Shown here: in pieces, positions 12,838 to 60,910 of the stretch
Layout of the letters: each line of letters opens with the position of its first letter
How positions within the stretch are numbered: position 1 is the stretch's first letter
Source: Marchantia polymorpha subsp. ruderalis
Taxonomy: Eukaryota > Streptophyta > Marchantiopsida > Marchantiales > Marchantiaceae
DNA: 64,000 nt
Direction of reading: 5' to 3'
NCBI GenBank assembly: GCA_037833965.1
Contig: AP031357.1
Location: forward strand, 24,138,001 to 24,202,000
Position numbers and translations under genes: made by a program
Notes under the pieces: generated by a model
What the model saw: the letters and a program-made list of their open reading frames with translations, nothing else
Databases searched by the model: none
What the model was told of the DNA's origin: nothing

Positions 12838-13018
12838 ACAACGACACAAAATAATGTGGTTCATCCTTAAGAAGAGGGCTACGTCCACCGAGAACACGCT
12901 GGACTTTACTTCTAGGTTATGTTCAAAAAGATACAATGTAGAGGGCGAAATTCAAGGTATTTATCTCTAGTCCAGGCGACCGTCCTAACTATAAATAGCT
13001 AAAATCTGAGGTTATTCC
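12838..13018 (-). mobile_element. Copia-type LTR fragment, copy b
   Basis: About 94% identical by eye (around 11 differences in 180 bp) to the split copy at 20769-20823 plus 21596-21720. It runs from the ACGACACAAAATAA block to GAGGTTATTCC and then stops abruptly where the TGTCGTGCGAATA repeat begins. Importantly it preserves the uninterrupted site CCACCGAGAACACGCTGG, the empty version of the site into which a solo LTR inserted at 20824. Confidence 0.65.
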
Positions 13019-13019
13019 T

Positions 13020-13134
13020 TGTCGTGCGAATATGTATAGCCATACACTCTACATCGCTGACATGCTACTCACATACATATACGCACACAAACACACATAT
13101 AAGGCGCGAGAGAGTACACACTCAAAATGTCACA
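13020..13134 (-). repeat. short TG...CA repeat, left copy
   Basis: A 115-bp unit starting TGTCGTGCGAATA on the plus strand and ending TGTCACA, so it has TG...CA ends on either strand. It recurs at 13401-13509 with three substitutions and one short indel. The pair flanks the 261-bp repeat at 13138-13398. It could be a very short LTR or a terminal part of a longer LTR duplicated in tandem. Confidence 0.6.
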
Positions 13135-13137
13135 ACT

Positions 13138-13398
13138 GAGATAAACAGGAGATTCTCCACTGGAATTCCCGTCGGTCGTTTACCCTACTAGCAAAACCGT
13201 CACCGTCACAAACATAGTCAAGCCAAATCCACTCCACACTCGGAGATTGCAGGTCGATGCTTCCGGGCACTACTTCCAACACGCCAGGCTTGACTCGAAG
13301 AACTGACGTTCTTCGAGCCGTCCCCCACTGTATACCCCTCACGATCCAAACCCTAAGCTCAACACTATTTTTAGCAAAACACGGAAAACTACATGACA
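13138..13398 (-). repeat. 261-bp LTR-like direct repeat, left copy (partner 20508-20768)
   Basis: In the same orientation as 20508-20768, with about 18 differences by eye (roughly 93% identity). The minus strand begins TGTCATGTAGTTTT, a plausible LTR start, and contains the imperfect hairpin GAAGAAC...GTTCTTC. The two copies flank the methyltransferase-carrying element and the HISN3 fragment, so they may be partial LTRs of one insertion, or two insertions of an unrelated LTR. Confidence 0.65.
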
Positions 13399-13400
13399 GC

Positions 13401-13509
13401 TGTCGTGCGAATACGTATCGCCATACACTCTACATTGCTGACATGCTACTCACATACATATACGCACACATACATAAGGCGCGAGAGAGTACACACTCAA
13501 AATGTCACA
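13401..13509 (-). mobile_element. candidate 3' LTR (or part) of the Ty3/Gypsy element
   Basis: The second copy of the TG...CA unit. On the minus strand it begins TGTGACATTTTGAG immediately after a guanine-rich tract (CTAGGGGGGCGAGT, about 13510-13523) that could be the polypurine tract. It lies about 170 bp beyond the end of the PHD-finger frame, where a 3' LTR should start. A length of 109 bp would be unusually short; the true LTR could run on through 13138-13398 to 13020. Confidence 0.45.
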
Positions 13510-13680
13510 ACTCGCCCCCCTAGCTGGCGGTCAGGTACCTCTGACTCCCGGGTAGCTCTATCTACAACTACATGCTATACACCTTCATGGGTGCGCAAAA
13601 AAATAGGCCGGGTGCTATGTTGCCCCATCGTTAGTCGCCTATCTGCAATTCATAACATGTGAAGATCAAGTCATCTACCC

Positions 13681-14010
13681 CTATGAAGTACATTGAGGAC
13701 AAACCCATCGTCTAGCCGGAATAACATTGATAGGTGGAGTCAGGCACAACATGTGCCATCCCCTAGAACACCTATCACACACCAACATACGGGCCGCCTG
13801 ACCATCAGACCCACATAGTATGCACCTCAAGCCAGCACGTACTATAGCTAAGCTTGGGTCCATAGTACCATCTATGTTTGGGAGGTGGCATGGCGCACAA
13901 TTGCGCACATGATCCTTCCAAACAACGCCGTCACGACCCTCCAACAAATAAACTCCAGAAGGTAACACCTCCCGCACTCGCAAGATTGTGCGTCCCGCCG
14001 TCACATCCAA
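13681..14010 (-). mobile_element. PHD finger region of the Ty3/Gypsy element
   Basis: The last coding stretch of the element, after the integrase. An N-terminal part (VREVLPSGVYLLEGRDGVVW) resembles the SH3-like tail common in Gypsy integrases. The C-terminal 50 residues form a C4-H-C3 PHD finger: paired cysteines in LRCILCG, then LVCDRCSRGWHMLCL, and RRWVCPQC at the end. PHD fingers usually bind histone H3 tails, so by analogy with chromodomains of chromoviruses this could steer integration. Motif spacing is clear; the targeting role is inference. Confidence 0.8.
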
Positions 14011-14121
14011 TGTCGTCGGTGCAGTCTGCTATATATAGACGTAGTCCCCCACATGGAATCTACGAATCGATAGTCGATAACCTTCTCCCCGAATGGTTGC
14101 ATATTGCAACGTATCTCTATG

Positions 14122-15176
14122 TTAAGCAATCACAAGATTCTCAAACGCTGCAGGCATAACTCTCCGAAAGAGCTCTACATGCTGAGAACATACTATCACC
14201 CACATATTCGGGTCATCAAGGTTCACCACCTTGCTAGATTCACGACGAATCGATGTTGGCAAGTCTGGATCTCGGCCGTACAATAGAAAATATGGTGAGA
14301 AGGAAGCCAAGAATGCTTGCCGACTGAATCGATATCCCATGGCCAACCATGGTAACTTAATATCCCAGTCCCCAAGATGACCTTTCTGAAGGCCATACTT
14401 GCGCAACGTCCTCTTCACCGTCTGTACAACACGTTCAGCTAAACCATCCGCCTCTGGATGATCTCGCGACGTGATCCGGTGATCAATCAGCGTCTTGTCA
14501 CACAAGACCTAAAACTCACCCTGAAACTCCGTCCCCTGATCGGTCAACACCTCAGCTGGTGCACCATAGTGACTAAGCACCCTGTCAAGGAAAACATATG
14601 CTACTCTCTCACTTGCCTTGTCATGTAATGCCACCAACTCAATCCACTTGGAGAAATGTTTACCATAATCAACACATATCGATGATGTCGTACAGTCAAA
14701 GGTAGTGGTCCAACAAAGTTCAAACTCCAACGGTAACCCAACCCCATGATGGGTAATGGATGTAACTCTGGTGTCGGGGCATTGAACGATGCCCTCACCC
14801 GATCACAAACTACGCAACGTGATACCAACTGCTGTACCTGAGTATGCATACCACGCCATGAATACTGACCAAGGAGTAAGCTGTATGTACGCTTCACTCC
14901 AAAATGTCCCAACTACTCCTGAGCATGCCTCACAATGCGTGCTCTTTGAGCTGGATGTGGTACTACTCGTACCCTACCGTTCTCCCACACTCGGAGAACA
15001 TGTGATCCCTCTAATCGGTATCTCTTCGCCCGTTGGAGAACACGATCTCGCTCTTTGGCACCCACTGTGCCTGATACCATGCTGGTCCGTAGGAACTCCA
15101 ACACCAATGCATCATCGTGAACATCACGCTGATCCACACCACCATCCTCAACCTGTAGGATCTGAAGATCGACCAT
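14122..15176 (-). mobile_element. integrase region of the Ty3/Gypsy element
   Basis: Pieces of a Gypsy integrase. The zinc-binding part (HFGVKRTY...CVVCDRVRASF) is at about 14910-14780, a catalytic-core stretch with VLTDQGTEFQGEF at about 14560-14510, and the later core with HPEADGLAERVVQTVKRTL and the downstream FLLYGRDPDLP at 14505-14122. The wording of these motifs is typical of plant and algal Gypsy elements. Part of the fossil described above. Confidence 0.85.
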
Positions 15177-15345
15177 CTACTCTATAACTAGAGTAAGATG
15201 TCAGATGATCCTCTCTGCCGGAGTTTCCACATAACCAACACATGAAAGAAGATGCATGCCAACCAGGCACCATCTCCTTGTCAACCACACCATGCCATCT
15301 AGCTCCAGTGTCATCCTCATGGCTAGTGCATGGGTTCCGACTCAA

Positions 15346-15741
15346 TCATTCGGCATCCAGGTTCGCAACTCCAGGTCTATGCACTACCTGAAAGTCGTAC
15401 TGCTGTAAGATCAGAGCCCACCGTGCAAGCTTCCCTGTGAGCTTGTCGGACTTCATCAACCACTTGAGTGGCTGATGATCAGTAACAAGGGTGAATTGCG
15501 TACCAAACAAGTAACACCTGAAGTGTGCCACAACCCACACTGCTGCCAAGCACTCTCCCTCGTACGAACTATACCGCGACTCTGCTACGTTGTTTGAACG
15601 ACTAGCGTACGCAACCACAAACTCCTTGTTCTCATCATCACGCTGAGTCAACACCGCTCCAAGTCCCAACATACTCCAATCAGTGTGCAACTGGTATGGA
15701 CAACCTCTGATAGGTCTCTTCAAGATGGGAGCGACCACCAA
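15346..15741 (-). mobile_element. RNase H region of the Ty3/Gypsy element
   Basis: A Gypsy-type RNase H: LHTDWSMLGLGAVLTQ, then VVAYASRSNNVAESRYSSYE, CLAAVWVVAHFRCYLFG and FTLVTDHQPLKWLM, followed by the tether motif ARWALILQQYDFQVVHRPG. Placed directly after reverse transcriptase, as in all Ty3/Gypsy elements. Confidence 0.9.
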
Positions 15742-15783
15742 CCTGGCTTTGAGCTCTCCAAAAGCTCTCTCCTGCTCATCTTC

Positions 15784-16703
15784 TCATTGCCACTCCTGAT
15801 TTGACTTCAGCAACTGGTTCAAAGGCTTGGCTATCGCACTAAATCCCTTCACATACCTCCGGTAGTAGTTCGCCAAATCCATGAATGCACGGACTCTACT
15901 CACATCCGTGGGACGAGGGATGCGTGCAATAGCCTCCACCTTTGCTTGCTGAACTCCTAAACCACCTGGGTATATCACATGACCCAAGTACTCAACCTTC
16001 TCCTGGAAGAACTTACACTTCCCAGAATGTAACCTCAAACCATGAGACCTCAACCAATCTGCAAATGTATCTGGTGTTGCTCCACAGTGTCACTAAACAC
16101 CAAGATATCATCAGTGTAACATCTGACAAAATCCAACCCTGCCAGGATTCTGTCCATAATCCTCTGAAACTCGGCAGGTGCATTCTTCAATCCAAAGAGT
16201 AAGAATCGCCACTGATACAAACAATCCTTGCCATGGGAGTTGACGCCCCAAAACGCTGTCTTAGTCTTGTCCTCCTCCCGAATTGGCAACTAATGATATC
16301 CTGCCCGAAGATTCAAAGTACTAAAAATCCTTGCATGTCCCACCACATCGAAGATCTCCTTAGGTGTAGGCATGACATACTTATCGGACTTTGTCTGCCG
16401 ATTGATAGGACGGTAGTCTCCACACATGCGCATATCCGTGTAGTTGCCATGTACATCCTTCTTCACCGGCATGACAGTGGCTGACACATACTCTTCATGT
16501 GATAACTCCACTACTCCAGCCTCCAGTAGGTCCAACGTCCTACTTCGAATCAAATCCTTCTTCATCTCACTGTATTGATAAGGACGACGGAAGATTGACG
16601 TATCACTAGCCAATTCTATCCGTATACCGGGTCCAATCAATGCACCCAACTCTTTCATACTGAAGGCAAAACAACTCCTATAGTCTCGTAGGAATTGTGT
16701 CAA
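15784..16703 (-). mobile_element. reverse transcriptase region of the Ty3/Gypsy element
   Basis: Recognisable RT blocks: PVKKDVHGNYTDMRMCGDYR and DKYVMPTPKEIFD (fingers), FLLFGLKNAPAEFQRIMDRI, the YTDD catalytic box in FVRCYTDDILVFSD, and the thumb/connection motif CKFFQEKVEYLGHVIYPGG. The sequence is closest in feel to Ty3/Gypsy RTs. Part of the fossil described above. Confidence 0.92.
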
Positions 16704-17029
16704 TCGTCACCTTTTTACTTCTCTGATCTGGGAACCAATCAATGGCTTCCATTCCTCTTCCATAGACACACTAGAGGGAGGCGACACTGTCAATGGTTGC
16801 TACGCTACATCATGCAAAGAAGGATTCTCCATACCCTCCTTCGTAGCCATCTCCACATGAGAATCCTCTCCCATGGGCTGCAACTCTAGCAAGTCCTCTC
16901 GCCACGTCCCATGAACTCCAAGGATGACGAATATCTCGCCTTTCGCTCCCATTCATTGCCACTACCGTCCCGGTAGACAATGAGCTCAGAAGTGGTGTAC
17001 TAACCACTAAATCAACGCGCAAACGGCGT

Positions 17030-18033
17030 TGATCCGCCAAACCCAAGCCCACAATCCACGTCAAGCTGTTCAAGTCCATAGCTTGACCCAAAACCTGACA
17101 ACGTGAAGCCTCTGAAACTGAAGCAGTTGCGGTCACACCAGTCATAAATCCCATCGCACGTTCTCTCTCATCAACGTTGGGCTCCACCAACTGATGGACT
17201 ATACTATTCCACAGTAGTCGAGGTCCACCATCACGATATGCATGTGATGCCGGATAACTGACCAACGTAGGTAAAGCCATCCGAGGCTGACCTACGCGGT
17301 TCACCAACGCCATAGGCGACCTATCAGCAACTTTCACCACCTGAGAGTGTCAAAAAACATCCAAGATACTGTCAACGGTGAGTGTAGGATCACGCTGCAC
17401 AGAATCATAGGCATGACGCAATATCTCACGTGGCAAAAGGTTGGTCCACCATAAACGTGCATGATGAGCACGTGATCCAACCCTCGCAGCATCCAATAGT
17501 ACTACTGATCCAATCCATGCTCGGACCTGATGTACACTCGCCATCATCTGGGCCCGAGTGTCATCCAACAATGGTACGTTCTCCAGAATGTATGCTGGAG
17601 AACGTGTTTGCTGCACTTGGAGATGACGTAACACTCGCATCATCTCCCAAAACATCCGAGATCTGGGATCATGCAACCCTGTCCCATGTCCAGCGCGTGT
17701 GTGTACCTGACATGGCCATCCTGCACTCACCATATCAATATGGCCGACTCGATCAAGGTCCGGCGCCCCCAGCAACGAAATGTCTGTAGGCAATGCCTTC
17801 TAGTATCCTCTAACAGTTGATCGCGGCAATAAAGAAGGAAAACGCTGCATCAACTGCGCAACATGTCGTGAAGAGAGTCGACGTGCAGTCTCGTCCTTCT
17901 CCACATACAAGTATCTCCGCACGAAAATACATGACTGCAACACTGCAGCCAAACCTGTGCTGATCCCACCAAAAAGATCCAGCAAACAAACGACTTCTGA
18001 GGAATACTCCCATGCAATAGGTGTAGTAACCAA
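17030..18033 (-). mobile_element. C5 cytosine DNA methyltransferase domain captured in the Ty3/Gypsy element
   Basis: The conserved C5-methyltransferase motifs occur in their normal order on the minus strand. Motif I (AdoMet binding) is LLDLFGGISTGLAAVLQ near 17990. Motif IV (catalytic Pro-Cys) is DMVSAGWPCQ near 17730. Motif VI is YILENVP near 17570. Motif VIII is HHARLWWTNL near 17450. Motif IX is ERERAMGF and motif X is RCQVLGQAMDLN, between 17170 and 17050. The region between VIII and IX would hold the target-recognition domain. Features such as the FGGISTG loop and RLWWTN recall DNMT3-like and phage-type enzymes, but I cannot place it by eye. It would methylate cytosine in DNA. It sits between protease and RT of the same strand, so it looks like part of the element's polyprotein. 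The domain shares the element's broken state. Confidence 0.88.
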
Positions 18034-18144
18034 TGGTGATAGTGTGCTAGAACCACATACTAGCCGGTCACCTGAATCTCTCTCTGCCTCTGCTGGTAAA
18101 GAGGCTTCACTTCAAGCCTTCTTCACCAACCTATCAGCCTCCAG

Positions 18145-18623
18145 CTATAGTGCCTGACCAGAACTCCAAAGTGAAACATCTAAGGGTGAAGGCACTACCG
18201 CTGCGAAACTCACAACTTCCTCCATATACTCACAGACTGGGGTATCGTTGGCTGACCTGTTCCTCTCTAATAAGTCCTCAGGCCAGGTGAGCACTCCGCT
18301 GAAACCCGCAACAGATGCTAAGACCGCAGATGAAGATCCAAGAGGACGATCTCGAGAAATATATCTCACTGGCAACTCGCTTAGACGTCCATCGCCAGAC
18401 TGCCAACCAGGACCAAAGGCAGCTGTCTCCGTCCAATAGTCCATCCGAAAACCCATCAGATATAACATAGCTCCACCAACAAGCACATCATATGACTCTG
18501 CTGATGTAACCACCGCAAGAATTCCGAACTGCGAGCTATCCTGAGGGTGATCATGCCTCAACTGCACCGCTATGCTCTCGCTCGTCATAAAGTAAGACCT
18601 ATCGCTGGCGCCACCAAGCTCTC
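18145..18623 (-). mobile_element. aspartic protease remnant of the Ty3/Gypsy element
   Basis: The motif YDVLVGGAMLYLMGFRMDYW followed by TETAAFGPGWQSGDGR and LPVRYI resembles the C-terminal half of a retroelement aspartic protease, where YDVLLG(M)xWL is usual. The LGGAS string just upstream may be a remnant of the active-site region. The segment from 18400 to 18145 is an unrecognised linker before the methyltransferase. Confidence 0.6.
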
Positions 18624-19100
18624 ATCCCCTAGGAACTGATGATTTAAGCCACGAAATCAATCAGCAGCCAGCGAGGAAACAAAGAGAAAGAAGGTATAAG
18701 TGGTGGACTTACTCCCCTTGTATCTCTATGTGTGAGAATACACGGTTCTTTCTGTGATGTATCCCTCCAAGTGGATCCATCCATCCTTGTTCCTGTGCGA
18801 GAAGCTCTATAAGGAAGCTACCACCCTATTATTCACTACCAAGATGTTCAATGACTAGCATTCGAACTATAGAATTGCCATCGATGTGCATCTACCCTGG
18901 AGAATGTGATTAGTTTTCATTCTCAACCTGCGGTAGTGCCATGTGAGATAAGCTACGCATTTATCGCTGTGGGGTACACCTTAATTCTGGACTACTACTG
19001 CCTTGGGGTTGAGTACGTCACTACTACTACCCACTTTTGCTCGCAGAGTACGTAAAAAAAATGACAAAGTGCACTTTGACATTGCTCCAAACAGGGTTTT
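18624..19100. other. unassigned DNA upstream of the retroelement coding block
   Basis: No protein domain is recognised here on either strand. By position it should hold gag or the 5' untranslated leader of the Ty3/Gypsy element, but neither is visible. Confidence 0.4.
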
Positions 19101-19106
19101 ATCTGC

Positions 19107-19526
19107 CTAGGTTGATAGCCACTTATCCGTAATTAGCTCCTCATCAACACTTAACCTTTTGACTTCGACATCGACTCCATGAACCGAGAACTCATCTGCA
19201 ACATTTCCCAACTCTTCTATTGTATCTTTATTCACGATCAAATTAGTGAATCGCTGCCAACGGTCGGTGACGACATAATATTGTCGATCCTTCTTCCTGC
19301 AGCTCAGATCTAGATGTAGCTTGTCTTTACTGACCACTGTCACAAGCTTCTGTAACTTCTGTAGATCAAGCTCACCTCGACTGAAAATATATGACGTGAC
19401 GATGACATGGCTGGCACCATATGCTAGATACCTCTCTGCGTTTTCCGGATTGACACCTCCACCAAACTGTAAACCACCAGGATTATCTCCCAAAGCTTTT
19501 ATAGCTTCAACCTCTCCAATGCCAAT
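19107..19526 (-). pseudogene. HISN3: intronless fragment of HISN3 (HisA-type isomerase)
   Basis: About 140 codons match the middle of plant HISN3, the plastid enzyme BBMII isomerase that catalyses the fourth step of histidine synthesis. Diagnostic strings are NPGGLQFGGGVNPENAERYL, GASHVIVTSYIF, LDLSCRKKDRQYYVVTDRWQ and DEFSVHGVDVE. The match begins at EAIKALG and is lost after DEELI, so the N-terminal third and the C-terminal phosphate-binding end are missing. An in-frame stop lies just upstream (19527-19529) and another soon after the match. The stretch is collinear without introns, which suggests a cDNA-derived copy. It lies between the retroelement coding block and the right-hand LTR pieces, on the same strand as the element. 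Capture by a retroelement is the likely origin. Confidence 0.8.
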
Positions 19527-19749
19527 TCAGGTATGGAAGTACAACGTGAGTTGTTTCCACATCCGCGAGAGTCTACTATAGTATATACACGTCTTTCGTG
19601 ACTTTGACCTTGATTGTTGGAGGTCCAAACTGGTGCTGAGCCTGTCACCTTCTCGGTGCCACGCACTTGCGAGCCAAAATGACAAAGTTCACTCTCTCGC
19701 CTTGGTCTGCCTAATCTGTATCACCATCATCTCTTTGGAGCCTGTGTGC

Positions 19750-20121
19750 ATGTCGGTCGGCCCGTTCCCAACAGATTCAAAAGTTGTGGCATCTGCAGTC
19801 GATGATATGATTAATGATAAAATGAGTCATCCCACGGGGGCGGCTTCTTCAGTCTACATCGATGTGACTGAAATCCGAGATGACGACATGAACGTTAGCC
19901 CGTGTTATGCAACCGTGGCCGAATCACAAATCGAAGTACGATCTGATGCAAGTGACTCCGATGATGACCTGCCTTTAGTTGAAGCGGGCTGCCGAAGAAT
20001 GCTAGCGAACTATGATCCAAAACCGAAAACCAACACCAACCCAAAGAAGAGGAATCTTCTTGAGGTTTCCATTTCGACGGAATTAGGTGTTTTCGAAGCA
20101 ACCCTGGAGCTTTCTCTCTGA
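19750..20121 (+). other. unassigned ORF of 123 codons
   Basis: An ATG-started frame (MSVGPFPTDSKVV) with an acidic stretch (RSDASDSDDDLPLVEAG) and a basic patch (DPKPKTNTNPKKRN). No domain is recognised. It lies on the strand opposite to the retroelement, between the HISN3 fragment and the right 261-bp repeat. It may be captured host sequence or chance. Confidence 0.2.
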
Positions 20122-20507
20122 TTTCTTTCAAATGTCCCGCTCTCCTCTGCCTTTCATTGCTAAAAAGCAATATCAGACAGGACTTATCATCCACGCGCCA
20201 AACATCCAACAAAACGACTCATTAATTTCTGATTTCTCTACATTACGTACTCTGCTTCATTGACCGAGTTCCACTTGATCGTTTTTACTGTTCTAAATCG
20301 TTTATATCGAATCTGTGAAATCCTTCATTTAAAAACTCCAAAAAAACTTCAAACTCTCAAAACTCTTCAAACGTCCGCGGCGAACGAACACTTTGTAACC
20401 ACGAGTGTTGTTTCTCGTACTGCAAACTGCAAGAAACCAACAAAGCAACATCAAACAAAAACTTGATAGTAAACACCGACCGATTCGGTGTAAGCAGTTC
20501 TTCGAGG

Positions 20508-20768
20508 GAGATAAACGGGAGATTTCCCACTGGAATTCCCGTCGGTCGTTTACCCTACTGGCAAAACCGTCACCGTCACAAACATAGTCAAGCCAAACCC
20601 ACTCCACACTCGGAGATTGCAGGTCGATGCTCCCGGGCACTACTCCCAACGCGCTAGGCTTGACTCGAAGAACTGACGTTCTCTGAGCCGTCCCCGACTG
20701 TATACCCCTCGCGACTCAAACCCTTAGCTCAACACTATTTTTAGCAAAACACCAAAAACTACATGACA
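20508..20768 (-). repeat. 261-bp LTR-like direct repeat, right copy
   Basis: Partner of 13138-13398 (about 93% identical by eye). The related sequence may continue leftward to about 20470, where minus-strand GTTTACTATCAAG follows a small hairpin (ACACCGA...TCGGTGT). It abuts the Copia-type LTR block at 20769 with no gap. Confidence 0.65.
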
Positions 20769-21743
20769 ACGACACAAAATAACGTGGTTCATCCTCAAGA
20801 AGAGGGTTACGTCCACCTAGAACTGTAAGATCGGATATTGCATGTGTGAAATAAAACTAGAATTAGCCAAGGAGTTAATCATGGTTAGGATAGTTATGAC
20901 TAAATCTAGCTAGTTATGACTAAGTCTAGCTAGTTTAGCTATAATGTCTATACTTGGCAGAATAACTAGAGAAGTTCTAGAAGATTTGAGTGAGCACTTC
21001 TATTTTGTCTTGTACAAAAGTCTAGATTCCAAGAGAAAAGACTTTTTGGATTTCATGTTTAGTTTTGATTGGTTTGACTAAAGTAAGGAGTATTCCATTG
21101 GTTAGACTAAGTCTTATGTTGACTTAGTGGAAAGTGGAAGTTCTAGAAGTTGGAAAGGCACAAATGGCATGTCGCCACCTCAATCTAGGGATTAGTAAAC
21201 ATCTAGAAGGTTTAGGGGGCCAATGGCATGTTGCCACATATTGATAACTAGTCAACCTTACTATGGTTTATCTTCGTAAAAGTAAGTTAGATAGAAATTA
21301 CCATTTGTTACTATGGTAAATTCTCAAGTAGTATATATAGAGAGGTAGGGAAGAGCCTCTCAAGCAAGTTTGGAGAGTTCATATGTAGAGACTTGTTTCA
21401 TATATGAAAGAGTGACGAATTTTCAGTACCTTGGAGTGTCGATGAGTGTATGAGTTGGAGTGATACCTTGAGAGATTGTGTGAGAGGGTGTTTAGGTTAT
21501 GAGTATGATGCGGAATCCTAGTCTTCTAGAATCATGATGAGCTACCGAAAAGCCATCTGAGGTAAACCTGAGTGAGAGTCAGCCCGGAGGTTGCAGAACA
21601 CGCTGGACTTTACTTCTAGGTTATGTTCAAAAAGACACAATGTAGAGGGCAAACCTCAAGGTATTTATCTCTAGTCCAGGCGACCGTCCTAACTATAAAT
21701 AGCTAGGATCTGAGGTTACTCCTTAACTAGAGTTAACTTCAAA
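20769..21743 (-). mobile_element. Copia-type LTR, copy c, split by a solo LTR
   Basis: Two pieces, 20769-20823 and 21596-21743, align as one with copy b (12838-13018) at about 94% identity. The right end lies before a purine-rich tract (minus-strand GTTAAGGGGAAGAT, about 21744-21760), as expected of a 3' LTR. The 772 bp between the pieces is a later insertion. Confidence 0.65.
20824..21595. mobile_element. 772-bp solo LTR nested in a Copia-type LTR
   Basis: Starts TGTAAGATCGG and ends GGAGGTTGCA, so it has TG...CA ends. It is flanked by a 4-bp direct duplication GAAC (5 bp, AGAAC, if the final A is shared). The related LTR at 12838-13018 shows the uninterrupted target, which confirms the boundaries. 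No coding sequence lies inside, and there is one LTR only, so it is a solo LTR left by recombination between the ends of a full element. A TATA-like TATATATAGAGAGG lies near 21333-21346. Confidence 0.85.
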
Positions 21744-41650: not shown

Positions 41651-44600
41651 TAACTAACACTACACTGCACTATGCTATGCACATGCACGGAACCACGCAA
41701 CACTACACTCCGCAGACCTGTGCTTCGCCTCCTGCGCGACGGACTGCCGCGCACTAACTCCCCACCCTGCCAGTCTTCCGCTCGACTGCGCAGTCCCAAA
41801 CGCTGCAACGCCGCGGACACTTCCGCCTCGAGGGTGGACATGGTATCCCGCGCCTTCGACAGAAAGGAATCTAACTTCTTCGCTATTCGCCGCCGACTCC
41901 TACTGTCACCTGCCAACAACCCGGCTGCACGAAGCTCTAACTCACGCAGTGTGAGTTTCTCCTGCGCCGCCACTTCCCAATGGGCGTAGCCCTTGAGACA
42001 GTGGGCGACGCGCCTCGCCATCTCTTCCTTCGAGCGATCTGCCTCTCGCCTGCGATCATCTTCAATTACTACCAACTGCGATTCGGCCTCCGCACGCTGA
42101 GCTCTCAATTCCCCGCACTCCGACTATAGCCTGCGGATTAAATCCTCATCCGCCTGTCGTGCGAGCTGACACTCCGCCAACAACCGCGTCTGTCGCACGA
42201 GCTCCTCTGACAGAACCTGATTCTGAGTCTTCTCAGAAATCAGTTCTTCTGTGGTCTTCACCACATCCCTGGTGAGCTCTTCCAGTCTCGCCTTCTTCAA
42301 TGTGTCGTAGTGGGTGTGCGACTTCCGCACGAGATTATACTGTCCCCACAAGCATTCATGCTTCTCCCGCAAATCCTTAAGTTCCCGGTCCACCCGAGCT
42401 AGCAGCTTGCTAGTGTGGACTTTAGTGCGAGTCCGCCTGCGCACTAACTCGACGTACGACCCAGGCTGGAGAGGATCTGCGTATTTATCAAATTTGCGAT
42501 CCAAGTACCTCAGCAGAGGTACTACCTGCTCACAGAGCGCCGCCGCCGGAGATCCAACGATTTCCTACTCCTCCTTGGTGTCTCCCGATCCCGACATTGC
42601 TTCCGTGGATCCTACTTCGTCATCGTCCGAGGGAAGGATTTCGGTCGCCATTGATTGCGTTGGCGACTGGCCCGAGTGGGGCTACGAGTGGTCTGCGGGT
42701 GCTGCCGCCGATGGCACTCCTGCAGCTTCGCTGCTCCCCGCTAAAATGTCCAAGGCGGTGGGTGAATGTGGCCGTGCTACATCCCCATCATCCGCCTGCC
42801 GATCGTCGATCGTCTCCTCTTCGCCGCCGACGTCCGCCGCCGAAGGCGATCGAGCGGAATGTGTCTGCGCGGGGTGTAATTGCGCATCGCGCACTCGAAT
42901 TTCGTCCCGCGGACAGACAATCCGCTCATCCGTTAGGTCCTGCGCGAGGGCTGCGTCTGACCTGCGCGTAGGCGCAATTACCGGCACCTGGTCCGCCGTA
43001 GGCGCAGCGCCGAAGGCGACAGAGCCGAAGGCCGCTCGCCCGATGTACCTGGCCCCGAAGGCCCTACCGCCGAAGGCGCATCTGCCGGCGGATTACCCGC
43101 CGGCGGTGCGGTCTCCGCACGCTCCCTGCTAAAAACTCGTTGGCCCGAAGGCCCTGGCGCCGAAGGCGCAAATCGCGGCGCGTTATACGCCGGAGGGTCT
43201 AGTCCCGAAGGCCCTTGACCCGAAGGCGGATCTTCCGCCGGCTCCTTCCCCTTCCTACGTTGTACCGGGGGTGAATCCTGCCTACTCGTAGGCGGCCGCT
43301 TGTGCGTAGGCGAACTTTCTCTGCCTACGCGTAGGCAGAGGTCCACGTCTGCTTGAGGTCGCCTATCCGCTGAAAATCGCCTGTGCGTAGGCGGAACACT
43401 CGTCTGCATCGCACGTGGTAACTCCGGAGGCCCCTGGCCCGAAGGCCGCCTCTCGTCCGCCGGAGGTGTAGCGTGGTCCGCCGCTCCTTCGGACGTCCGC
43501 GCTCTCTCAATCATCTCCGGTGACGCACTTCCCTTCTCCGTGGCGATCGTCGCCGTGTCCGCGCTGCTGGCTGGTAACACAAGCCTGCGCGCCTTCTGCT
43601 TCGGCCGGCTGCACACTTCGTGCAGTGGCCGTTGTCGTATGGGAGCAGTGGGTTCTCGATGCTGCTCCTCCTCTGGTTCCTCTCTCCATCTCCGCTTCCG
43701 CGGCACTCTTGCTGCGGGTGTGCTTCTTCCATCGTCCCGCCAGGTCGGCGGAGTAGAATCTGGTGAATCCTCTGCATCAGTGTCGACCTCGTTATCCCGC
43801 ACATACTTCCCGGGATGGTCGACGGACAATGGCGGAAAGCGAGCGAGCTCCGCCGCGGTCAAACAGTTCCTCTGCCGATAGAAGTTTATCAAGAACGGGG
43901 AGAGGTGATTGAGCGTTCCCCCCTTCTCCTCGAAGGCGTGCTGTCGCATCACTCTATGCAGGATGCTCGCCCAGTGAACTGGAGCTCCGGCCAAGATGAG
44001 CTCCACAAAAGAAACCTGCCACAAGGTGATGTATGAGGTGCGGTGTGGCGGCAGCAATTGCAGCAGCGCCGCCGCTACAGTTCGGCAGAAGCGATCTTTG
44101 TAGTCGCGGGTCTTGTACCCGTTCTTGGTAGACCTCTCCCGCTTGAACAACTCCACAAATTGCGCCTCGTCCTGCTTCGTCACCTTGACGCTCTCACTAT
44201 CAAAGAGGAGGTACCCGTCGGTGCCGGCACACCTCCCCAATGCCTGCGCCCAATCGTGGACGGTCCACCGATCTACGTGCGGACGCAATCCGCGCGTAGG
44301 TTGTGGCTCCGCGTCCAACCATTCGCGTACCATGTCTACACAAATGTAATTCCATCCCCATAGCAAGAAATCAAGCTTTCTTGCAATCAGCCGCTCCTCG
44401 AAAGCACGCAACCCGTTCTGTGGAAGCCGGAGCAGCAGCATCCGCAACCTGTTCAATCTTGACATTGCGTTCTTGAACTTTGCTTGCGCAACAACTCTCT
44501 CTCTGCTCTACTCGAGCTTCTTGCTCCCTCTACAAATTCTAATCTCCCTCAATTCCAAATCGCGCGCACTCAATTCTCTCTAAGTCCCCAAGTAATCCTC

Positions 44601-46070: not shown

Positions 46071-50747
<4,677 letters not shown>

Positions 50748-59274: not shown

Positions 59275-60910
<1,636 letters not shown>

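What the first reader, a model, noticed from the sequence alone, without database searches (positions are those of the whole stretch)
17030..18033. A cytosine DNA methyltransferase captured inside a Ty3/Gypsy retroelement of a land plant
All main C5-MTase motifs (I, IV with Pro-Cys, VI Glu-Asn-Val, VIII, IX, X) occur in normal order on the minus strand, between a protease remnant and a Gypsy reverse transcriptase. The only described retrotransposon-borne DNMTs I know of are from Klebsormidium (a charophyte) and Symbiodinium. A land-plant case would mean the system was inherited or spread across the algal-plant transition. Such an enzyme could let the element methylate its own copies, perhaps to hide from or manage host silencing. 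This copy is a fossil, so any activity would have to be sought in relatives.
Basis: partly seen in the sequence, partly recalled or inferred. Interest (0 to 1): 0.95.

Follow-up and report, generated by a model that had tools for sequence, protein, structure and literature searches.

The report
Plant jumping gene carrying DNA methylase
A plant genome, probably that of a Marchantia-like liverwort, holds many copies of a copy-and-paste jumping gene that carries its own DNA-methylating enzyme, kept in working-looking condition by selection, and that also stitches pieces of host messenger RNAs into itself; this appears to bring a rarity described from algae into land plants, where it could be tested.

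Summary
Confirmed, and larger than first seen. The window holds a decayed 7.7-kb Ty3/Gypsy-type element (minus strand, 20768 to 13020) with a C5-cytosine methyltransferase (MTase) between the end of the protease and the reverse transcriptase. The same genome lists 121 MTase matches (capped list); 89 have the element's RT downstream on the same strand, 76 of them at one exact spacing. Of 20 fetched copies, chosen for long frames, 19 have an open ORF1 (Gag-protease-MTase), ending in TAG-CAA-CCA in 19 of 19; 15 also have an open in-frame ORF2 (RT-RNaseH-integrase-PHD). The MTase is under purifying selection between two subfamilies (dN/dS 0.13). Ends are split repeats (A...B-A-B) with TG...CA termini and 4-bp target duplications (7 of 7 tested). 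Six leaders examined are patchworks from unlinked loci; two, tested at exon joints, contain spliced host transcripts. Most likely the enzyme is made with Gag and methylates the element's own DNA copy; that step is inferred. Origin of the enzyme (DNMT3 or phage-like) is unresolved; the host's identity is inferred.

The parts
13020..20768 (-). Whole decayed element copy, TG...CA, 7749 bp; no matching 4-bp target duplication in this copy
   Evidence: end rule from other copies
20508..20768 (-). 5' repeat A1
   Evidence: 93% identical over 261 bp to A2; starts TGTCATGTAG
20496..20506 (-). Putative primer site CTCGAAGAACT, complementary to a hairpin arm in A
   Evidence: in other copies the 12-mer follows A1 and its complement lies in A1 of 8 of 8
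19649..20110 (-). Captured transcript piece from contig C9, three exons joined, antisense
   Evidence: 2 of 2 joints fit intron removal
19154..19514 (-). Captured transcript piece from contig C5 (HisA-like), four exons joined, sense
   Evidence: 2 of 3 joints fit intron removal; PF00977 E 6e-5, 23.0 bits, just below cut-off 23.6
18148..18621 (-). ORF1 stretch after the protease active site
   Evidence: no Pfam family
17015..18020 (-). C5-cytosine methyltransferase, broken by stops
16794..16802 (-). TAG CAA CCA at the end of ORF1, leaky-type stop context
   Evidence: same nine bases in 19 of 19 open copies
15787..16706 (-). Reverse transcriptase
   Evidence: PF00078, below cut-off in the window; open copy 118.5 bits
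15349..15783 (-). RNase H
   Evidence: PF17917 5e-36
14125..14912 (-). Integrase (zinc finger and core region)
   Evidence: PF17921 1.2e-11; core PF00665 in an open copy
13690..13824 (-). PHD finger at the integrase C-terminus
   Evidence: PF00628 5.2e-11
13401..13512 (-). Repeat B1
13138..13398 (-). Repeat A2
13020..13137 (-). Repeat B2, ends CGACA

Best explanation
A dead copy of a multicopy, recently active Ty3/Gypsy-type retrotransposon family that has taken a C5-cytosine DNA methyltransferase into its coding region. ORF1 encodes Gag, protease and MTase; a conserved UAG in a leaky context separates it from an in-frame ORF2 with RT, RNase H, integrase and a PHD finger. The MTase would thus be made with Gag, in structural-protein amounts, and Pol only by stop readthrough. 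Most likely the MTase is carried into the virus-like particle and methylates the element's double-stranded DNA copy before or at insertion, so that new copies arrive marked. The ends are split repeats (A...B-A-B), inserted by the DDE integrase. In the leader, strand jumps during reverse transcription add pieces of host mRNAs next to the primer site. Shown: anatomy, copies, selection, termini, target duplications, spliced transcript pieces in two leaders. Inferred: readthrough, packaging, catalysis on cDNA, self-priming, PHD function.
For: Open ORF1 in 19 of 20 and both ORFs open in 15 of 20 copies picked for long frames; domains; MTase-RT adjacency 89 of 121, strand-flipped control 0; TAG-CAA-CCA 19 of 19; MTase dN/dS 0.128 between subfamilies, Gag 0.135, RT 0.048; A1 at the 5' end 8 of 8; B-A-B at the 3' end 16 of 20; TG...CA and 4-bp target duplications 7 of 7, A1 and A2 differing by 0-2 substitutions; exon joints 8 of 10 fit intron removal. 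A related retrotransposon DNMT (SymbioDIRS-Dnmt3) methylated CG in yeast (PMC5890265).
Against: No activity, expression or readthrough data. The algal KnitGypsy DNMT gave no methylation in yeast, called inconclusive by its authors. Protease and Gag rest on weak Pfam matches (E 0.24 and 0.02) and motifs. The structure model failed (mean pLDDT 32.5). The copies used were chosen for open frames. The window copy has no matching target duplication.
Confidence: 0.6

Rival explanations
1. The MTase is real and selected, but its target is not the element's cDNA: it acts on host chromatin or RNA, or serves mainly as a nucleic-acid-binding part of the Gag precursor.
For: The algal relative's DNMT gave no activity in yeast; no substrate is known here; the selection result does not name a target.
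Against: Catalytic motifs are conserved in the open copies checked (16 of 16 rows that the script could place; 4 others were not placed by its pattern); fusion to Gag-protease places the enzyme where cDNA is made (inference).
Confidence: 0.25
2. The MTase was taken from a phage- or virus-like enzyme, independently of the Klebsormidium element, so the shared layout is convergence.
For: Profile comparison favours five phage MTases (5.9e-20) over three DNMT3s (7e-15); PHROG 116 4e-17; phage tblastn down to 1e-15.
Against: Against solved structures the best matches are DNMT3A (1e-10), with bacterial HaeIII and HhaI weaker; profiles differ in depth; the tree is unresolved with long branches; the described A-coding-B-A-B layout is shared with KnitGypsy-Dnmt3.
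Confidence: 0.35
3. Chance neighbours, or a host DNMT gene broken by a retroelement insertion.
For: Only that the window copy is broken.
Against: Adjacency in 89 of 121 listed places, 0 with strands flipped; continuous ORF1 from Gag through MTase in 19 of 20 copies; 28% identity to host DNMT3.
Confidence: 0.01

Closest known systems
KnitGypsy-Dnmt3 of Klebsormidium nitens (de Mendoza et al. 2018, PMC5890265; passages and one section read)
   Same: Gypsy-type domains, intronless unrearranged DNMT in the polyprotein, DIRS-like A-coding-B-A-B repeats, purifying selection on the DNMT
   Different: Here the MTase lies before a conserved leaky-type stop, a PHD finger ends ORF2 (the word PHD does not occur in the paper's main text), leaders carry captured host transcripts; host is probably a liverwort. 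Sequences not compared
SymbioDIRS-Dnmt3 and SymbioLINE-Dnmt of Symbiodinium (same paper)
   Same: Retrotransposon with a DNMT; SymbioDIRS also has A-B-A-B repeats
   Different: DIRS has a tyrosine recombinase, LINE no repeats; here a DDE integrase and target duplications
Maize Bs1 (passages in review PMC13317346)
   Same: Pieces of several host genes inside one LTR-type element
   Different: Here each of six leaders examined has its own patchwork, placed right after the putative primer site
Tf1 of fission yeast (recalled)
   Same: A primer site next to the 5' repeat that is complementary to a sequence inside the repeat
   Different: Transcript start unknown here; split repeats instead of plain LTRs
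PAT/DIRS elements (recalled; A-B-A-B layout seen in PMC5890265)
   Same: Split direct repeats
   Different: Integrase instead of tyrosine recombinase; TG...CA ends with 4-bp target duplications

Membership tests
Ty3/Gypsy | Order protease-RT-RNaseH-integrase | tested here: met
   (protease by DSGA motif; Pfam RVP_2 only E 0.24)
Ty3/Gypsy | DDE integrase with short target duplication and TG...CA ends | tested here: met
   PF00665; 4 bp in 7 of 7 copies with both flanks
Ty3/Gypsy | Two plain LTRs | tested here: not met
   no LTR pair; A...B-A-B instead
Ty3/Gypsy | RT groups with Ty3/Gypsy in a tree | not tested
   assigned by domain order and RNaseH/integrase families only
KnitGypsy-Dnmt3 lineage | Gypsy domains plus A-coding-B-A-B repeats plus intronless unrearranged DNMT | tested here: met
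   against the description
KnitGypsy-Dnmt3 lineage | MTase and RT group with the K. nitens sequences | not testable with these tools
   no K. nitens sequence held; protein database switched off
C5-cytosine DNA methyltransferase | PF00145 match and ordered catalytic motifs incl. Pro-Cys and ENV | tested here: met
DNMT3 | Closest to DNMT3 among C5-MTases | tested here: inconclusive
   favours DNMT3A; favour phage MTases; tree unresolved
DIRS/PAT | Tyrosine recombinase | tested here: not met
   integrase PF17921/PF00665 in ORF2, no recombinase among the Pfam matches of ORF1 and ORF2
DIRS/PAT | Split direct repeats | tested here: met
Tf1-like self-priming | RNA 5' end complementary to the primer site | tested here: inconclusive
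   complement present in A1 of 8 of 8 copies, hairpin stable; transcript start unknown

The most novel reading that the evidence does not exclude
One methylase-bearing Gypsy lineage with split ends has lived in streptophytes since before the move to land and still works in liverworts. It makes its DNA methylase at Gag level, marks its own cDNA before insertion, and again and again adds newly spliced host transcripts next to its self-primer site: a self-methylating, exon-shuffling retrotransposon.
Probability: 0.3. Interest if true: 0.92.

Novelty: new variant of a known kind. Interest (0 to 1): 0.8.

Why it matters
Retroelements with DNA methylases were reported from charophyte and dinoflagellate algae. 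A family with many open copies in what looks like a land plant, possibly Marchantia, would put the question of why a transposon writes the mark used to silence it into an organism that is easy to work with. The stop placement predicts how much enzyme is made relative to Gag. The per-copy patchworks of host transcripts give a natural record of strand jumping during reverse transcription, and a route by which such an element could pick up a gene such as a methylase.

Tried and rejected
Plain LTRs: looked for, not found; the split-repeat layout replaced them. Structure prediction of the MTase: mean pLDDT 32.5 with nine near-identical sequences; no fold search was made. Tree of MTases: unresolved, long branches. 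Relatives in viral and bacterial contigs by peptide pattern: none confirmed. NCBIfam: only dcm, 42.3 bits, below its cut-off of 100.65. Host-gene disruption: rejected. tRNA-type primer site: none beginning TGG stands right after A1 in the eight copies; the 12-nt complement to A stands there.

Rows dropped: L012 from the target-duplication count (no B2 found); L016 from the ORF1 set (early stop) and so from dN/dS; subfamily B and L016 were left out of the site comparison. In one search four copies (L014, L019, L020, L021) were not placed by my search pattern. Leader searches covered only the part in the fetched upstream piece: L010 2053 of 3966, L012 2371 of 4337, L017 2002 of 3881, L020 1661 of 3544, L022 1661 of 3708 bp; the window 1831 bp. 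Some leader sources may be other element copies (the first 659 bp of L020's leader match DNA just upstream of L016), so one search's source numbers are upper estimates; the exon-joint test is the firm part: 8 of 10 joints fit, 2 did not.

Full report
WHAT IS THERE. On the minus strand, 20768 to 13020, the window holds a decayed retroelement. Pieces of its proteins match Pfam DNA_methylase, RVT_1 (below the curated cut-off here), RT_RNaseH, Integrase_H2C2 and PHD in that order (ten pieces sent, five without a family). The methyltransferase (MTase, about 17015-18020) shows LDLFGGISTG, AGWPCQ, ENV, SRAHHAR and the motif IX and X regions in normal order (by eye).

THE FAMILY. The window lies in an unnamed 241-Mb genome of nine contigs. 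A search with one MTase listed 121 matches, scored out of 645 candidates; by my count 26 of the 121 lie in uninterrupted frames of 1348 aa or more. A search with the RT listed 137, scored out of 3340 candidates. In 89 of 121 MTase places the RT lies downstream on the same strand within 0.9-3 kb, 76 of the 89 at one exact spacing; with strands flipped the count is 0. Both lists are capped, so the family is larger; 48 of the 137 RT places have no MTase match in the list, which may be due to the cap, to decay, or to copies without MTase. Adding extra matches and a wider span (0.5-6 kb) leaves 31 of 137.

CODING PLAN. I fetched 20 copies chosen for long frames. In 19 of 20, ORF1 (1351-1365 aa) is open; in 15 of 20, ORF2 (1042-1045 aa) is open too. 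ORF1 has Gag (Pfam E 0.02, below cut-off), two CCHC-like knuckles (by eye), a DSGA protease motif (Pfam RVP_2 only E 0.24) and the MTase (PF00145 5.8e-10); ORF2 has RT, RNaseH, integrase and PHD. The two ORFs share a frame and are parted by TAG-CAA-CCA in 19 of 19 open copies of both subfamilies, although the flanking codons differ, and in the window at 16794-16802. UAG-CAR-YYA is the readthrough context of tobacco mosaic virus (recalled). The MTase therefore sits on the Gag side of the stop.

SELECTION. Between subfamilies A (16 copies) and B (3 copies) dN/dS is 0.128 for the MTase, 0.135 Gag, 0.163 protease, 0.248 linker, 0.141 post-protease and 0.624 for the ORF1 tail after the MTase; RT 0.048, RNaseH 0.048, integrase 0.074, PHD 0.122 (13 against 2 copies). 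So the MTase is kept about as well as Gag and less strictly than RT. Within A the MTase value is 0.230. In the window copy, C-to-T changes are more frequent at CG and CHG than at CHH sites: 47 of 480 against 56 of 987 in the ORF2 region (p 0.005), 71 of 773 against 78 of 1399 over the three regions compared (p 0.002). In the smallest region CHG (4 of 52) does not exceed CHH (11 of 133). This fits past methylation and deamination, by whatever enzyme.

ENDS. Paired LTRs were not found. Instead a 119-bp repeat B flanks a 294-bp repeat A at the 3' end (B-A-B in 16 of 20 copies, one of them with an extra unit; L009, L012, L019 and L028 incomplete), and A alone stands at the 5' end (8 of 8 copies with upstream DNA). 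Integrated ends are TG...CA with 4-bp target duplications in 7 of 7 copies with both flanks; A1 and A2 differ by 0 to 2 substitutions in these, which speaks for recent insertion. The inner B1-A2 joint carries GC that is absent at the termini. The window copy has the same ends but no matching duplication.

PRIMER. Directly after A1 stands ACTCGAAGAACT, the complement of AGTTCTTCGAGT in A, which is one arm of a stable hairpin (z -5.1 and -6.1 in the two subfamilies). The rest of A hardly aligns between subfamilies, so this part is singled out. It suggests self-priming as in Tf1 (recalled). Not tested.

CAPTURED TRANSCRIPTS. Between the primer site and the last ~600 bp before ORF1 the copies differ, with some pieces shared by subsets. 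The upstream parts of six leaders were searched against the genome (window, L010, L012, L017, L020, L022): each matches two or more unlinked places. For three source loci I fetched the genome and tested the joints: 8 of 10 fit canonical intron removal (L017 4 of 5; window C5 2 of 3; window C9 2 of 2). The window carries a HisA-like piece in sense (PF00977 E 6e-5, just below cut-off) and a piece from C9 in antisense. Spliced pieces show that mRNAs were copied; several joints between sources overlap by a few bases, others leave gaps, as expected of template switching. L022 also holds an AAA-ATPase-like piece in antisense whose source was not searched. Some matches may be other element copies, so the number of sources is not firm.

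ORIGIN OF THE MTASE. Against solved structures the best matches are DNMT3A (1e-10). Against phages, tblastn reaches 1e-15 (490 records, all under 60% identity), PHROG 116 4e-17, and profile comparison favours five phage MTases (5.9e-20) over three DNMT3s (7e-15), with profiles of different depth. The tree is unresolved. The host's DNMT3 (L001; itself 2e-30 to DNMT3B) is 28% identical over 184 aa: not a recent capture of that gene.

PHD. The finger is closest to chromatin readers such as MLL3, CHD4 and KDM5B among solved structures. A role in choosing insertion sites is inference.

WHAT IS KNOWN. De Mendoza et al. 2018 (PMC5890265; passages and one section) describe KnitGypsy-Dnmt3 with Gypsy domains and DIRS-like repeats, DNMT in the polyprotein, Ka/Ks below 0.2, and no activity in yeast, called inconclusive. 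PMC12344493 (passages) mentions retrotransposon DNMT3s of streptophytes and dinoflagellates as previously reported. Marchantia, Physcomitrella and Selaginella do not occur in the main text of PMC5890265. PMC6453930 (passages) treats plant DNMT3 genes, not elements. Four paper searches were answered (of the 87 papers I saw the 20 listed) and showed no land-plant case; eight others failed, and the library lacks most subscription journals, so absence from print is not established.

HOST. Peroxidase, NdhS and LEA_2 genes in the window, host DNMT3- and DRM-like genes, and one 5.6-Mb contig beside eight of 24-33 Mb fit a dioicous liverwort such as Marchantia (micro sex chromosomes: PMC13182070 passages).

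Noticed in passing
window 18650-20480; leaders of L010, L012, L017, L020, L022: Copy-specific leaders made of pieces of unlinked genome loci, with introns removed in the two leaders tested; sense and antisense pieces both occur.
   Followed up: yes
window 12838-13019 against 20766-20823 and 21595-21724: Host DNA on one side of the element recurs on the other in pieces, and the copy has no matching target duplication; perhaps a later rearrangement or insertion into a repeat.
   Followed up: partly
L019, 9468 onward (oriented), with L036: After B1-A2 the sequence continues as the 5' part of another copy (949 bp, 99.9% identical), so copies may stand in tandem.
   Followed up: no
ORF1 and ORF2 of subfamilies A and B: Synonymous divergence is uneven: about 0.5-0.6 in Gag to post-protease, 0.28 in the MTase, 0.15 in RNaseH; may mean recombination between subfamilies.
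   Followed up: no
leaders of L010, L012, L017, L022: A shared open frame of 130-133 aa ending in LEKFLDSLPKD or close to it, no Pfam family; possibly older captured cargo.
   Followed up: partly
window 42978-44465: A 495-aa open frame without a Pfam family.
   Followed up: no
window 48880-50747 and 59989-60399: Peroxidase exons at two places, possibly neighbouring paralogues.
   Followed up: no
contig C1 (5.6 Mb): Eight of the 121 listed MTase matches lie on the small contig, which may be a sex chromosome.
   Followed up: no
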